A stretch of DNA of 64,000 nucleotides from Legionellaceae bacterium (GTDB lineage Bacteria > Pseudomonadota > Gammaproteobacteria > Legionellales > Legionellaceae): positions 1-64,000 of the forward strand of contig JARGPO010000018.1 of the NCBI GenBank assembly GCA_029213075.1. Direction: 5' to 3'. Positions within the stretch are counted from its first letter, which is position 1, and each line of letters opens with the position of its first letter. Position numbers and translations under genes: made by a program. The notes beneath the pieces were generated by a model. That model worked only from the letters and a program-made list of their open reading frames with translations, was not told the origin of the DNA and made no database searches. Below are positions 42,390-55,275 of the stretch, piece after piece.

Positions 42390-42872
42390 TCAGGAGCCAC
42401 TGCTAAGTAAGACCATGACACTTACAACACCTGCGGGGCTTTTGTCATCGACGCTAAACTGCTTTACTGTTATAGCGTGCTTTCCACAAAAGTCCCATAA
42501 CCAAATCACAAAACTATTATATGGTACCTCATCAAAACTAAGCTGAATATTGCCATCATTAGTTTGTTCCAATTGATAATGAAATTTCTGAAAACTGCTG
42601 TGTTTTAACTCATTTGATAGTTCTGAAAGAGCCTCCTCACCACTCAATGACTCAGTAGGAGTTACATCAATATATTGAGAGCGAACCATCTTCATCCACT
42701 GTAGAGTCTCTTTTCCCTCAGTTAGTAATTTTTGCTTATCTTTAACAGAACTTACAAGAGGAGAATATATTAGAGCATAAAAAATGTAACAACATAAAAA
42801 TACAGCTGCAACAAGAAGCATTCTTCGCTCTCTTTCATTTATCTGCTCTAAGTACTCCTTTATATTTATCAT
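42390..42872 (-). CDS. gspM: Type II secretion system protein GspM
   Basis: 160 residues: a short cytoplasmic tail (NIKEYLEQINERERRM), one membrane segment (about 17-38) and a periplasmic ferredoxin-like region. The family is divergent, so the call leans on layout and on the 4-bp overlap with gspL upstream. GspM, with GspL, is part of the inner-membrane platform that links the GspE ATPase to pseudopilus assembly. Confidence 0.85.
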   Translation of the reverse strand: MINIKEYLEQINERERRMLLVAAVFLCCYIFYALIYSPLVSSVKDKQKLLTEGKETLQWMKMVRSQYIDVTPTESLSGEEALSELSNELKHSSFQKFHYQLEQTNDGNIQLSFDEVPYNSFVIWLWDFCGKHAITVKQFSVDDKSPAGVVSVMVLLSSGS

Positions 42873-44032
42873 GATAACTCCAAAGTAGCTATTACCTTAT
42901 CACCTTTAGTTGCTGCAGAAGATTTACGTACTGTGACGTGTAGTTTTTTTAATCTCAATGCAAGCTTTTCTAATCCATAAAAATCATGAGAGGTAATACG
43001 TACAGATAAGTTTGAGTTTTGGAACTTAAGTTGTTGAATAGACACATAATCATCTTTATCAAGATTATCTGGGTGCACAGCAGCAGATAAGTTAGCAAGC
43101 AACTTCCATATTCTTGCATCATATCCTGATTCATTTTTCTTTAATAGCTGATTTATACGAAACTTAGGGCTAATAACTTGTTTAGCATTAGGAAAAAACT
43201 CTCGATACACAACGGCAATTTTTTTATCATAATCAGATAACTGATTATCTAATACTAGCCAAGAAACAAGGTTTGTTAAAATTAAGCCGCAAACCCAAAC
43301 TGAACCTAATATGATTGCAAGCTTATACCATCGTTTAGAACTATCTTTGTGTGTATTATGTTGAAACTCTCCTTGACAAAAGTTCATTGGATTTTTTTTG
43401 AATAATTGGGTTGCAACCCAGTTATAAGAATCCATATCTACTTGTGTGAATTTTTCGGAGTGTTGCAAAACTTGACTATCTGTAAATTTAAGAACATGAG
43501 AAAATGAAGCTTGGCCTCCTAGGTACTTATCAAGTAAATCGATACTAAGTGCACCTTTAAAGTTAATATCATTTACAAGCAAGCTACTTTCAATTACACA
43601 TGCCTCACCAATATTTAACGAAAACCACTCGTTAGTGATTACATTATATTTAATATTAGCGCCAACTAATTTAGCTTTTAGATCAGAAATAATTTGTTTA
43701 TCTGTTACTAATATTAAATAACGATTATTCTCATAATGTTCTTTATCAAAAGAGAAGTGGAGATTTGTTACTGGTTGCGCAAGCTTATCCTCTAATGCAT
43801 ATGTTAATGCTGGTCGAGCTTTTCGCTCATTAATATAAGGCAACTCTAACTCATGAATACAAGAGACATGTGTAGGAAGTACGACTATAGTTTTAGAATT
43901 TTCTTGGAGTTTTTTAAAGTCTTCTATAGATCTTAACTGCAGAGGTTGCTCAACATTACCTTGCTCATCCAGACGAACACTTAAACAATTTTCATCATTA
44001 AAATGCTCTGAAAAAATATAACAAGTTAACAT
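42869..44032 (-). CDS. gspL: Type II secretion system protein GspL
   Basis: 387 residues. The cytoplasmic actin-like part covers about 1-230, with VVVLPTHVSCIHELELPYINERKARPALTYALED near the start and NFCQGEF just before the membrane segment (about 236-260). The periplasmic C-terminal domain is about 270-387. This is the standard GspL layout. GspL recruits GspE and pairs with GspM. gspK is on the other strand at 54322, so the system genes are scattered, as in Legionella. Confidence 0.92.
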   Translation of the reverse strand: MLTCYIFSEHFNDENCLSVRLDEQGNVEQPLQLRSIEDFKKLQENSKTIVVLPTHVSCIHELELPYINERKARPALTYALEDKLAQPVTNLHFSFDKEHYENNRYLILVTDKQIISDLKAKLVGANIKYNVITNEWFSLNIGEACVIESSLLVNDINFKGALSIDLLDKYLGGQASFSHVLKFTDSQVLQHSEKFTQVDMDSYNWVATQLFKKNPMNFCQGEFQHNTHKDSSKRWYKLAIILGSVWVCGLILTNLVSWLVLDNQLSDYDKKIAVVYREFFPNAKQVISPKFRINQLLKKNESGYDARIWKLLANLSAAVHPDNLDKDDYVSIQQLKFQNSNLSVRITSHDFYGLEKLALRLKKLHVTVRKSSAATKGDKVIATLELS

Positions 44033-46228: not shown

Positions 46229-46672
46229 AATATGTTTCCTTATGGTTGAAGATATAAAGTTCTTTGTAAGTCTTTATATCAATTAGCCTTCAATAAATAC
46301 AATTTAAAGTAAGGCAAGGTTTTAAAAGCGTCATATATTAACTCTTTTTATCCTAAATTAATATAGTTTTCGAATATTAAATCTATAGTCGACTACCAGA
46401 AGAAGTAATCTAAAGCGATTTAAGCATGGGGACTTACAATGTTGTGCTAATTTCACTATTTTTAATTTATTATTGCAATAGCACCTAAAAAGGGAATACT
46501 TATGATATTTCACGCATTTTATAATAATTTCAATTTACGCTCTTGTTAATAAATCCAAATCAAGATAGTCTTTGATAAGGAAAATCATATCAATCGTACT
46601 AAAGATTGGAATGTACAAACAATGGATTGTAAAAAGCACCAGGAAGTGCTAAAGATTTTATATAGGGCGAAG
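46229..46672. other. Intergenic region without a recognised gene
   Basis: 444 bp between divergent rpsF and the lipoprotein gene. It must hold both promoters. I see only tiny frames (for example 46501-46548 with AAAGGGAATACTT before an ATG, 15 codons; and one of 20 codons from 46425) and no RNA gene or terminator that I can support. Confidence 0.4.
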
Positions 46673-47737
46673 ATGAGAAAGTATTTATTTGTGTTAATTA
46701 GTTTTTTAATGTTATCTTCATGTAAGAACATTGGACCTCTAGAAATACCAGTTGATCGCCGTAATTATAACGAATCGCTACAACATAGTGAGATGCAACA
46801 GCATTTACTTAATATTGTAAGGTTACGTTATAGTGACCCTCCATACTTTTTAGCTGTAAACAGTATAGTCGCACAATTTACTGTTTCAGCATCTGCAACC
46901 GCAAACGTAACAAACCAAGCACCACCTCCATTATTAGTAGGGTTTGGGGAGTTATCATCAACCTTTTCAGATAGCCCAACCATTACATTTAGCCCGATTC
47001 AAGGTGGGGAGTTTTTAACAAGACTAATGTCACCTATTGATATTAGTGTAGTGTATATGTTACTGCGCTCTGGATGGGGAATTAATCATATAATTCGACC
47101 AATTACCCAAAGATTCAATAATATTGAAAATGCTAGTATTGCATCACGTGTTACATCATCGCGAATACCAATATATAAAGAGTTTATGGATATAGGCTAC
47201 ACCCTTCTTAAGTTGCAACATACAAACCAATATCTAATGAGAATGAGTAAACTGCATAATAAGTTTGCGATTCATTTCATTATTCTCTCATTTGAAGGTT
47301 TAAATAAGCATGATATGGCTAATCTTAAAAAAATAGGAGTCGATAAAAACCGCAAAGATTTTTGGCTAACTGATACCTCACCAGAACGTCCAAATGAAAT
47401 ATATATTGAAACCAGAACAGTTTTAGGATTACTCAATTACTTTTCTAAAGGGGTACATGTTCCTGAAATAGATGTGAAAAATAAGCAGGCTCTTATAACT
47501 TATTATCCAAATGGTGACCGATTTTACTGGGATGAAGTTACAAAAGGATTATTCGAAGTACATTCATCCCAGTATAAGCCCAATAATGCTTTCGTAAGCA
47601 TTTGGTACCGAAATAAATGGTTTTATATTTCAGACTCTGATTTTGACTCAAAAGAAACAATGAATCTAATTATGATTATAATGGGTATATATCAAGGTAA
47701 AGTAGAACCATTCTTGCCGGTATTTACTGTCAGCTAA
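46673..47737 (+). CDS. Conserved uncharacterised lipoprotein
   Basis: 354 residues from the ATG at 46673; the frame is open to 46622 but a signal peptide with lipobox LSSC (Cys17) starts exactly at 46673. Recognisable blocks: RRNYNESLQHSEMQQHLLN then IVRLRYSDPPYFLAVNSI, and a later GGEFLTRLMSPIDISVVYMLLRSG. I recall similar blocks (LLNLVRLRYxDxPxFLEV) in hypothetical proteins of many proteobacteria, without an assigned role. C-terminal half: WLTDTSPERPNEIYIETRTVLGLL. It ends with a 4-bp tail-to-tail overlap with the pilX-like gene. Function unknown. Confidence 0.75.
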   Translation: MRKYLFVLISFLMLSSCKNIGPLEIPVDRRNYNESLQHSEMQQHLLNIVRLRYSDPPYFLAVNSIVAQFTVSASATANVTNQAPPPLLVGFGELSSTFSDSPTITFSPIQGGEFLTRLMSPIDISVVYMLLRSGWGINHIIRPITQRFNNIENASIASRVTSSRIPIYKEFMDIGYTLLKLQHTNQYLMRMSKLHNKFAIHFIILSFEGLNKHDMANLKKIGVDKNRKDFWLTDTSPERPNEIYIETRTVLGLLNYFSKGVHVPEIDVKNKQALITYYPNGDRFYWDEVTKGLFEVHSSQYKPNNAFVSIWYRNKWFYISDSDFDSKETMNLIMIIMGIYQGKVEPFLPVFTVS

Positions 47738-48234
47738 AATAGCATGCTCATAATTCCTGAATTAATATTCTTGAAATTATGGGCATTACAACTTGAAGAA
47801 GTATTTGGAGTTGCCACCCTAATTTTCATTAACCTTTCTTCTCCTAGTGGCGCAAGAACTATTAACCAATGCGTACTACTGAAAAGTATGTCTCCAACTT
47901 TTATTTGCAAGCAAGGATAATCACCTATCCGACCAATCAAAAAGTTATACTTCCTCTCTTTATCCTCTAAAACACAACCGCCCTTCTCTATTTTTTTTAT
48001 GTTCATATCTAAATTATCATTAATACATGAAGGCATAAGATAATTCTCAATGTTATTACTAATTTTTACAGCAAGCTCTTCAGTTGCATAAAAACTCTTA
48101 TGAGAGTTAATTAAATTGTTGGTCAATTTAATATGTAAATACAGTGAATTCTGTATTGAAATAACTAGCATGGTTAAAACTAACAAAATAACAATCGTTG
48201 TTATAAATATAAAACCCTTATTTTCACTTCTCAT
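47734..48234 (-). CDS. PilX-like minor pilin
   Basis: 166 residues. The N-terminus MRSENKGFIFITTIVILLVLTMLVISI, then SHKSFYATEELAVKISN, follows the PilX pattern (G-x-x-L, hydrophobic helix with LLVLTML, then a Phe/Tyr-A-x-E-A helix). The consensus prepilin Glu5 is lacking, as in PilX. Such minor pilins prime assembly of type IV pili. It overlaps the double prepilin gene by 4 bp upstream. No PilY1 or PilE follows; the next gene is convergent. Confidence 0.75.
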   Translation of the reverse strand: MRSENKGFIFITTIVILLVLTMLVISIQNSLYLHIKLTNNLINSHKSFYATEELAVKISNNIENYLMPSCINDNLDMNIKKIEKGGCVLEDKERKYNFLIGRIGDYPCLQIKVGDILFSSTHWLIVLAPLGEERLMKIRVATPNTSSSCNAHNFKNINSGIMSMLF

Positions 48235-49109
48235 TTCATCCTTACTCGCGCAATTAATTCATGTGTAGAGTTATCCTTTAATCCTAGTAACAAAGTGACT
48301 ACTGTATAACCCTGATTATATTTGCTAGATAAAGACATACTTTTAATAAGAGGCGTTAACTCATTTGTGTCACGAAATCTATAATTTAGAGACTTGATTC
48401 CTTGTCGGCTATTTTTAATAAAATATGATTCTTCTATCCACTCTCCGACATAAATAGGTACTTGATAGTTAAAATGCAAAGAATTTAACTCAACATTAAA
48501 ACCTTCATAATAAATATTATGTACTTCGGCATGATAACAATCTGCAATTAAAAGAGGAGTCGATCTGTTTTTTTTTATATTAGAAGGAATTTTTAATTTT
48601 CTCTGACTAGTTGACTCTTTATTAATGGTAAATTCATCGCTCATACGATTAATATGCAAAGAGTTTTCTCCCACCAGCAATGCCTGTAAATTAGCTTTAT
48701 TCGTTCTTGTATCAAATGTGTCTAGGTTACTAATTGTCAAACAAGGTGTTGCACCAGCCTTTTGAATACTTCTACGAATTAAATCATACGCCAACTGCAG
48801 ATCTACTGCTTGTTCAAGATTATTTTGTGAGATAATAACTTGACGTTTAACTTGAATATATTGCTGAACCAAACCACCAATTAGTAAATTAGCTAATAAT
48901 AAACTTATTAATAACTCGACTAAACTAAACCCTCGTTGTTTTAATTCAAAATTATTATCTAATTGTGTTACGGTTGCTAGGCGCGTTATTACTTTCTGGA
49001 CTAGCTGACTTGTTTGCCACTGTTGCTTTAACAAAAGTAGTGATATGCTTGCAACTAAAAATAATGAAACTAATACTTCAGCCAGTGAAAACCCATGATT
49101 TTTATGCAT
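48231..49109 (-). CDS. Double prepilin: truncated PilV-like segment fused to PilW-like minor pilin
   Basis: 292 residues containing two complete type IV prepilin sites. The first is HG|FSLAEVLVSLFLVASISLLLL with cleavage after Gly6; the second is QRG|FSLVELLISLLLANLLIG with cleavage after Gly60, Phe61 and Glu65 of the protein. After the second site the sequence is PilW-like (QLAYDLIRRSIQKAGATPC). The first segment lacks the PilV globular domain; only its membrane helix and about 25 residues remain, and then PilW begins with no stop. So a pilV gene seems to have lost its 3' part and fused in frame to pilW. Sequencing error is unlikely to give an in-frame fusion with both motifs. Confidence 0.8.
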   Translation of the reverse strand: MHKNHGFSLAEVLVSLFLVASISLLLLKQQWQTSQLVQKVITRLATVTQLDNNFELKQRGFSLVELLISLLLANLLIGGLVQQYIQVKRQVIISQNNLEQAVDLQLAYDLIRRSIQKAGATPCLTISNLDTFDTRTNKANLQALLVGENSLHINRMSDEFTINKESTSQRKLKIPSNIKKNRSTPLLIADCYHAEVHNIYYEGFNVELNSLHFNYQVPIYVGEWIEESYFIKNSRQGIKSLNYRFRDTNELTPLIKSMSLSSKYNQGYTVVTLLLGLKDNSTHELIARVRMK

Positions 49110-49182
49110 TATTTATTCCTGAGGTTGGATAGTAAATATCGTATCACTGCATGTTCTGAAGTTGCAAGGAGCGCTAGATAAA

Positions 49183-50289
49183 ATGAAATACAACTATAAA
49201 AACTTAACTCACCACGGCATTCAATCTCTAAAACCATATATACCAGGAAAATCAATTGAAGAAGTTGCTAGGGAGCAAGGAATAACTGATATTATCAAGC
49301 TTGCCAGCAATGAAAATGTTTGGGGATGTAGTGAAAAGGTAATCCAAGCATTGCAAGATCTTTCAACTCAAAATCTGTCTCTCTACCCAGCTTCTATCTG
49401 TCATCCTTTTAGAGAGCAAATCGCAAAGTTCTTGAATGTAGAAACCGAAATGTTAACTCTCAGCAATGGCTCTGATTTGTTAATATGTTTACTGCTGATT
49501 TGTTTCGCACTACATAACGACAAACATATTTTAACCCACGATCATGCTTTTATCTCATATCAAATACAAGCCAAAACACTTGGAATACCGGTTGTTAGCA
49601 CTCCTACAAAGAACTGGGAAGTTGATATTGACGCAATGATTAATGCATGCACTGAAAAAACAGCCATGATTTTCTTAGCAAATCCTAATAATCCAACAGG
49701 AGGATTAATCAGTTATGAAGATGTAAAACGCTTAATTGAGTCAATTCCAGAAACAACAATCCTAGTTCTTGATGAAGCCTATTATGAATATGCCAAGGCT
49801 GACTTCAAAGGAAATTCAATTGATCTAGTTAAAAAGCACTCAAACATGGTGGTAATTAGAACCTTTTCAAAAGCTTACGGTTTGGCTGGATTAAGGCTAG
49901 GGTATGCAATATCAAATCCACAAATCACTCAACTACTTTATAGTGTCCAATTACCTTTTGCCGTAAATATTGCCTCCTTAACCGCTGCAAGTGTCGCCCT
50001 TAAAGATCAAGACTTTATTGATAAAGTTTTATCATTAACTAATCAAGGACTACAACAGATGAGAGATGGGCTAGATAATCTCAATATTCCTTATTTGCCA
50101 AGTTCAGCAAACTTTATTACTATCGATTGTGGGCGAGATGGCAATGATGTTTTTGATTTTCTACAAAAAACTGGGATTATTACAAGGCCTCTGCATCCTT
50201 ATAATATGAGCAACTTTTTAAGAATAACTATTGGTACAAAAGAACATAACGAACGAACCCTCAGTGCTTTATCTAGAGAAATTAAATAA
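49183..50289 (+). CDS. hisC: Histidinol-phosphate aminotransferase
   Basis: 368 residues from the ATG at 49183; the frame opens at TTG 49162 but AAGGAG lies 11 nt before the ATG. PLP enzyme of fold type I: IIKLASNENVWG, LSNGSDLLI, FLANPNNPTGGLI, LVLDEAYYEYA, and the Schiff-base lysine in RTFSKAYGLAGLRLGYAI. HisC makes histidinol phosphate in histidine synthesis; this group can also act on aromatic amino acids. phhB follows by 11 bp, so an aromatic role is possible here. Confidence 0.9.
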   Translation: MKYNYKNLTHHGIQSLKPYIPGKSIEEVAREQGITDIIKLASNENVWGCSEKVIQALQDLSTQNLSLYPASICHPFREQIAKFLNVETEMLTLSNGSDLLICLLLICFALHNDKHILTHDHAFISYQIQAKTLGIPVVSTPTKNWEVDIDAMINACTEKTAMIFLANPNNPTGGLISYEDVKRLIESIPETTILVLDEAYYEYAKADFKGNSIDLVKKHSNMVVIRTFSKAYGLAGLRLGYAISNPQITQLLYSVQLPFAVNIASLTAASVALKDQDFIDKVLSLTNQGLQQMRDGLDNLNIPYLPSSANFITIDCGRDGNDVFDFLQKTGIITRPLHPYNMSNFLRITIGTKEHNERTLSALSREIK

Positions 50290-54321: not shown

Positions 54322-55275
54322 ATGCACACCCAAAATAAATTAGTCAAAGTTAATGGAAGCGCCCTTATAACCGCTCTTTTTATAATGACCCTAATTGCAA
54401 TAACAGTTACCTCAATGAGCTCAAAGCTGCAATTAGATATTCATAATGCACGCATAGTAATAAATAGTGACAAACTATATCTAGCCTCTCAAGCCGTTTC
54501 TTACTGGGCTATAGATAATCTAAAAGATCCCAACCAAAAACTTAAACCCACAAACTCTCAAGGAAAAATATTAATATATCCTGAAAAATTTAAAAACATA
54601 TATCCTGGAGTAAAAACTACCGGTGAAGTATACGACCTCCAAGCTAAATTTAATTTAAATAATCTAGTAGAAGCATCCTATCAAACGACATTTTTAGAGT
54701 TAATAAAAATAGCTCTACCAAAAACCGATAACAAAACAAGAAAGCTTATCGTAGACGCAACTACTAATTGGGTTAAAGGAATACCATCCTCAAGCGCCAC
54801 TCATGACGAATGGCTAGATCGATACCTTAGCCAAGATCGAGTATACCTACCAGGTTATCAGCTTATGCAAAGCGTATCTGAATTTAGAACAGTCTTTGGT
54901 ATTACTCCAAAAATATACAATGCATTAATACCATATATAACTGCAATCCCTGAAACTACAGCAATAAATATAAATACAGCTTCAAAAGCTATACTAAAAG
55001 CCCTAGGAGGTGACATAAAAGATAAGGATATAGAAAAACTAATTAAATTACGCAAGCACAAAGAAATCAAAAACATAAACGAAATAAGCAAAATTTTAAT
55101 CACTCTCAACATCCCAAGTAATGAACTAACTGTCAATAGTGATTATTTTTTAATAGTCGCGAGAACTACCGTTGATGATCTAACTTTTACAAACTACACA
55201 ACTGTAAAACGTTTTACAAGAAACGATAAAAAATTAATGGTTGATGTTGTCAAGAATAGCTTTAATACCATCTAA
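54322..55275 (+). CDS. gspK: Type II secretion system minor pseudopilin GspK
   Basis: 317 residues: prepilin-like N-terminus with VNGSALITALFIMTLIAITVTSM (no Glu5, as is usual for GspK), then the large domain with DLQAKFNLNNLV, TNWVKG, LPGYQLMQSVSEFRTVFGI and ITAIPETTAININTASKAILKAL. GspK caps the pseudopilus tip with GspI and GspJ. It is solitary and overlaps the mltA 3' end by 4 bp, tail to tail. No ribosome site is evident. Confidence 0.93.
   Translation: MHTQNKLVKVNGSALITALFIMTLIAITVTSMSSKLQLDIHNARIVINSDKLYLASQAVSYWAIDNLKDPNQKLKPTNSQGKILIYPEKFKNIYPGVKTTGEVYDLQAKFNLNNLVEASYQTTFLELIKIALPKTDNKTRKLIVDATTNWVKGIPSSSATHDEWLDRYLSQDRVYLPGYQLMQSVSEFRTVFGITPKIYNALIPYITAIPETTAININTASKAILKALGGDIKDKDIEKLIKLRKHKEIKNINEISKILITLNIPSNELTVNSDYFLIVARTTVDDLTFTNYTTVKRFTRNDKKLMVDVVKNSFNTI

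What the first reader, a model, noticed from the sequence alone, without database searches (positions are those of the whole stretch)
48231..49109. A double prepilin: truncated PilV-like segment fused in frame to PilW
One frame of 292 codons contains two full prepilin cleavage and helix motifs, at Gly6|Phe7 and Gly60|Phe61, each with Glu at +5 and a hydrophobic helix. Everything after the second resembles PilW. If the prepilin peptidase cuts both, a 54-residue mini-pilin with almost only a transmembrane helix would be released along with mature PilW; if it cuts only the first, the second helix becomes internal, which would be an unusual pilin. Either outcome is worth knowing.
Basis: partly seen in the sequence, partly recalled or inferred. 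Interest (0 to 1): 0.72.

Follow-up and report, generated by a model that had tools for sequence, protein, structure and literature searches.

The report
Two pilins fused in one gene
In nine Legionella-family genomes a tiny helix-only pilus protein and its usual neighbour are joined in a single gene that keeps two complete cutting sites, so one chain may be cut into two tip parts of the DNA-uptake pilus, an arrangement for which I found no earlier report.

Summary
They are the only two such motifs in the window. It is not a private deletion or sequencing error: the same in-frame double prepilin occurs in nine genomes of four Legionellaceae genera, in two clades, with both sites intact and the junction under purifying selection (dN/dS about 0.1). 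No ATG, GTG or TTG lies within 33 codons before the second site. The "truncated PilV" is not truncated here: a free-standing helix-only V (48-78 aa) precedes W in 51 of 116 unfused pairs; the other 65 are 98-115 aa. The locus (hisC divergent; V-W-X) matches the L. pneumophila lpp1978-lpp1977-lpp1976 operon, whose deletion abolishes DNA uptake; it is not the pilY1 operon. Most likely the chain is cut at both sites, giving mini-pilin V and pilin W 1:1 for the complex that starts the pilus. The weak point is topology: both sites must face the cytoplasm. Fused linkers are more basic (+2.4 against -0.6), which would help keep the second site inside. Cleavage itself is untested.

The parts
48231..49109 (-). 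Fused V-W double prepilin gene, 292 aa, stop included
49117..49120 (-). SD-like AGGA before the V start codon
   Evidence: read from sequence
49089..49094 (-). Prepilin site 1, Gly6|Phe7 codons
   Evidence: invariant in all nine fused proteins
49029..49091 (-). V membrane helix, residues 7-27
48933..49028 (-). V alpha1 C-terminal part, now the basic linker, residues 28-59
48927..48932 (-). Prepilin site 2, Gly60|Phe61 codons
   Evidence: Gly60 and Glu65 invariant in A1 and A2
48858..48929 (-). W membrane helix, residues 61-84
48234..48857 (-). W alpha1 C-terminal part and beta-rich domain with invariant Cys123 and Cys191, residues 85-292
47734..48234 (-). X: PilX_N-like minor pilin without Glu5 (PF14341, 20.1 bits, under its cut-off); its start overlaps the W stop (ATGA)
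49162..50289 (+). hisC (histidinol-phosphate transaminase), divergent neighbour and synteny marker

Best explanation
The gene encodes a prepilin polyprotein of the Legionellaceae transformation (DNA-uptake) pilus. It joins minor pilin V (GspI/PilI position, reduced to a bare alpha1 helix) to minor pilin W (GspJ/PilJ position); X (GspK/PilK position, no Glu5) is encoded next. Shown: the fusion is real, conserved and under selection; both prepilin sites are intact in all nine fused proteins; no standard start codon lies near site 2 in this gene; PilB, PilC, PilD and ComEC are present. Inferred: one chain is made; the W domain crosses to the periplasm with the basic V-W linker held in the cytoplasm, so PilD can cut site 2; the released V then inserts as a small prepilin and is cut at site 1. 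This gives equal amounts of V and W for the complex that starts the pilus. Rough likelihoods: fusion real 0.97; single chain 0.9; right operon 0.9; site 2 cut 0.7; both sites cut 0.5.
For: Same fusion in nine genomes of four genera. Gly-1, Phe/hydrophobic +1 and Glu+5 kept at both sites in all nine; KQQW after helix 1 and N..E near the end of V also invariant. Purifying selection through the junction: dN/dS 0.09-0.11 where computable. No ATG/GTG/TTG within 33 codons before site 2 here, none within 40 in G063. Free-standing short V exists in 51 unfused pairs, so V can work as a bare helix. Linker charge +2.4 in fused, -0.6 in the same stretch of separate V. Two invariant Cys in W suggest a periplasmic domain also in fused forms. 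Model breaks the helix at site 2. Synteny with the operon needed for DNA uptake in L. pneumophila, W of exactly 268 aa in G112. PilB-PilC-PilD together on C65, ComEC-family protein on C84.
Against: No cleavage data. Topology: a first helix inserted the normal way would put site 2 in the periplasm, out of reach of the peptidase (PMC10191384). The stretch just before site 2 is not clearly basic (mean -0.3 in fused, +1.3 in the leaders of separate W). The linker charge difference rests on two clades, and some close unfused relatives also reach +2.
Confidence: 0.5

Rival explanations
1. Only site 2 is cut. V has become a long disposable leader or membrane tether (N-out, linker inside) that orients W; mature W is the only pilin product.
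For: Solves the topology problem; linker is basic.
Against: Site 1 (G, F, S, E+5) and the V helix are invariant in nine proteins of two clades, more than a mere leader would need. V and X remain conserved partners of W across the family.
Confidence: 0.2
2. Only site 1 is cut. The second helix stays internal and V-W works as one two-helix pilin.
For: Site 1 has the normal N-terminal position. V and W helices would be neighbours in the initiating complex anyway (by analogy with GspI-GspJ).
Against: Gly60 and Glu65 remain invariant in fused proteins, needed only if Phe61 becomes a mature N terminus. Normal insertion of helix 1 would leave the W domain in the cytoplasm, and two parallel alpha1 helices cannot be joined by a linker of 1-10 residues.
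Confidence: 0.15
3. W is also made on its own by internal initiation, so the fused chain is incidental.
For: Some fused genes have TTG or GTG codons 4-21 codons before site 2.
Against: The window gene has none within 33 codons and G063 none within 40. The junction is under amino-acid selection.
Confidence: 0.08
4. Assembly error or a decaying locus.
For: Relatives have separate V and W, commonly overlapping by ATGA (inferred from the 11-base spacing), so one indel could fuse them.
Against: Nine separately recovered genomes, purifying selection on the whole ORF, intact partner genes.
Confidence: 0.03

Closest known systems
L. pneumophila lpp1976-lpp1977-lpp1978 minor-pilin operon (PMC7811196)
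   Same: Gene order V-W-X, hisC neighbour, W of 268 aa in G112, type IV prepilin signals in V and W, X without one.
   Different: There V is a separate protein of about 105 aa; here V is a bare helix fused to W.
GspI-GspJ-GspK / PilI-PilJ-PilK / PilV-PilW-PilX initiating tip complex
   Same: Three adjacent minor pilins with the third lacking Glu5; W aligns with GspJ over the alpha1 helix.
   Different: V has no globular head; V and W share one chain; the W domain has no recognised structural match.
Geobacter PilA-N / PilA-C (recalled, not tested here)
   Same: A prepilin that is little more than an alpha1 helix, encoded directly before its partner.
   Different: PilA-N is a major pilin and its partner has no prepilin helix; here both parts are complete prepilins and are fused.

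Membership tests
Type IV prepilin (class III signal) | Gly at -1, Glu at +5, about 20 hydrophobic residues | tested here: met
   Met at both sites; two N_methyl matches above cut-off, invariant in A2
Type IV prepilin (class III signal) | A single signal, at the N terminus | tested here: not met
   Second complete signal at residue 60
PilV (TIGR02523) | Score above the equivalog cut-off 52.2 | tested here: not met
   22.6 bits, and at the second motif, not the first
PilW / GspJ | Family-level match beyond the N-terminal helix, or same fold | tested here: inconclusive
   GspJ TIGR01711 16.1 bits against 64.85; helix-only alignment with GspJ; no Foldseek match
lpp1976-1978 transformation minor-pilin operon | V-W-X order beside hisC, homologous W and X | tested here: met
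   the naming of G112 as L. pneumophila is inferred
lpp1976-1978 transformation minor-pilin operon | Needed for DNA uptake | not testable with these tools
   Shown only in L. pneumophila (PMC7811196)
fimU-pilVWXY1E operon | PilY1 next to the minor pilins | tested here: not met
   No PF05567 in the genome; the same search rings in 49 of 134 family genomes
Polyprotein cut by prepilin peptidase | Cleavage at both sites | not testable with these tools
   Needs protein data

The most novel reading that the evidence does not exclude
A prepilin polyprotein: one chain cut twice by the prepilin peptidase to give two pilins in fixed ratio, with an internal prepilin signal recognised downstream of a first membrane helix. 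I found no precedent in the papers searched.
Probability: 0.5. Interest if true: 0.75.

Novelty: new variant of a known kind. Interest (0 to 1): 0.6.

Why it matters
It would show that a prepilin peptidase can use an internal site and that pilins can be made as a polyprotein. It also indicates that V can work as a bare helix, so its job in starting the pilus would lie in helix packing, not in a globular head. The natural series within one family (105-aa V, 60-aa V, fused V, apparently re-split V) gives ready-made variants for testing how prepilins get their topology and how the initiating complex gets its stoichiometry.

Tried and rejected
Private deletion or indel: rejected, nine genomes share the fusion. 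Internal restart: no start codon within 33 codons in this gene. A separate intact pilV elsewhere in the genome: none seen; the other N_methyl genes are GspG/H/I/J, a PilA-like and a PilE-like pilin, a FimT-like one and one unclassified pilin on C45. The classical pilVWXY1 locus: rejected, no PilY1. Fold identification of W: two models, no significant Foldseek match. Sequence search of solved structures: nothing useful. One origin of the fusion: not excluded if G001 is counted with the fused group (AU p 0.136), marginal without it (p 0.047); the 126-row AU test did not finish. Homologous fusions outside Legionellaceae: none among the listed matches of a 369-genome class sample.

Full report
Observation. 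The ORF runs 49109->48231 on the minus strand, 292 aa, from an ATG with AGGA upstream. Two N_methyl matches pass the family cut-off. A six-frame scan of the window for the motif plus a hydrophobic stretch finds only these two. Site 1 is Gly6|Phe7 and site 2 is Gly60|Phe61, with Glu11 and Glu65 at +5. The stop overlaps the start of the next gene (ATGA), a 166-aa PilX-like pilin without Glu5.

Relatives. The genome belongs to Legionellaceae (record titles of its relatives). Of 143 family genomes, 129 have a match. I read 125 V-W pairs: 116 separate and 9 fused. The fused ones are the window genome (genus g1), G010 (g9), G025 (g24) and all six matched species of g54. Separate V lengths are bimodal: 51 of 48-78 aa and 65 of 98-115 aa, with nothing between 78 and 98; V starts were taken as the nearest ATG. 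The short forms are little more than an alpha1 helix. Fused V keeps the KQQW after the membrane helix and the N..E element near its end, and site 2 follows shortly after. So nothing conserved has been lost compared with free-standing short V.

Origin. In many separate pairs the V stop and W start overlap as ATGA (implied by the 11-base spacing), so one indel could fuse them. On a W tree the fused proteins form two groups: {G000, G010, G025, with unfused G001 inside} and g54. G001 has V and W in one frame separated by TAA and ATG, with an unusual 26-aa W leader; this looks like a fusion split again (inference). A single origin is not excluded (AU p 0.136 with G001 counted in).

Coding status. 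Across 12 codons either side of the junction, synonymous differences per site are 0.60-0.85 and non-synonymous 0.11-0.33 in five pairs; dN/dS is 0.09-0.11 where it can be computed. The window gene has no ATG, GTG or TTG within 33 codons before site 2, and G063 none within 40. A single translated chain is the best reading.

Which system. hisC relatives occur in 58 of 75 named loci and X relatives in 74. The operon lpp1976-1978 is needed for DNA uptake and for PilA2 filaments, and its authors propose that it forms the initiation complex (PMC7811196). The window genome has PilB, PilC and PilD together on C65, a ComEC-family protein, one prepilin peptidase and no PilY1.

Mechanism. The prepilin peptidase acts on the cytoplasmic face and prepilins insert with the leader inside (PMC10191384). 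Two such helices in a row pose a problem: if helix 1 inserts normally, site 2 lies outside and the W domain inside. Yet W keeps two invariant cysteines, and Gly60 and Glu65 are invariant. The linker between the helices carries +2.4 on average in fused proteins against -0.6 in the same stretch of separate V. By the positive-inside rule this favours a cytoplasmic linker, hence a cytoplasmic site 2 and a periplasmic W. This is suggestive only: the fused species form two clades and some close unfused relatives are at +2. Since site 1 is just as invariant, I favour cutting at both sites, with V inserting after release.

Structure. The model of the fused protein (23 sequences, pLDDT 86.8) gives helices 9-57 and 63-116, broken at site 2, then beta strands. 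The W domain alone models well (pLDDT 90.7) but matches no solved structure, so 'PilW' is a name by position and N-terminal helix.

Novelty. Searches for fused, tandem or polyprotein pilins found no relevant paper. No homologous fusion appeared among the listed matches outside the family. I class it as a new variant of a known kind: known minor pilins in a new architecture.

Noticed in passing
L011 / L133 (G001:C105) and L125 (G001:C79): G001, same genus, has V and W in one frame split by TAA+ATG with a 26-aa W leader, and a second V-W pair on another contig; no hisC or X relative was found beside that second pair (L217).
   Followed up: partly
family-wide: PilY1 (PF05567) was found in only 49 of 134 Legionellaceae genomes, and in none of the nine with the fusion among those reported.
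   Followed up: partly
L053 and L056 (G065, G066), start of the fused gene: Synonymous differences are 0.10 per site over the first 29 codons against 0.62 over the whole gene: recombination or an unknown constraint at the 5' end.
   Followed up: no
46622-47737 (+): 371-aa protein that looks like a lipoprotein by eye, no Pfam or NCBIfam family above cut-off, tail to tail with X; the two stop codons overlap.
   Followed up: no
54322-55275 (+), 42869-44032 (-), G000:C43: T2SS genes gspK and gspL lie apart from each other and from the gspG-H-I-J cluster on C43.
   Followed up: no
L137:1608-2129 (G000:C45): An additional 173-aa pilin-like protein of unknown assignment.
   Followed up: no
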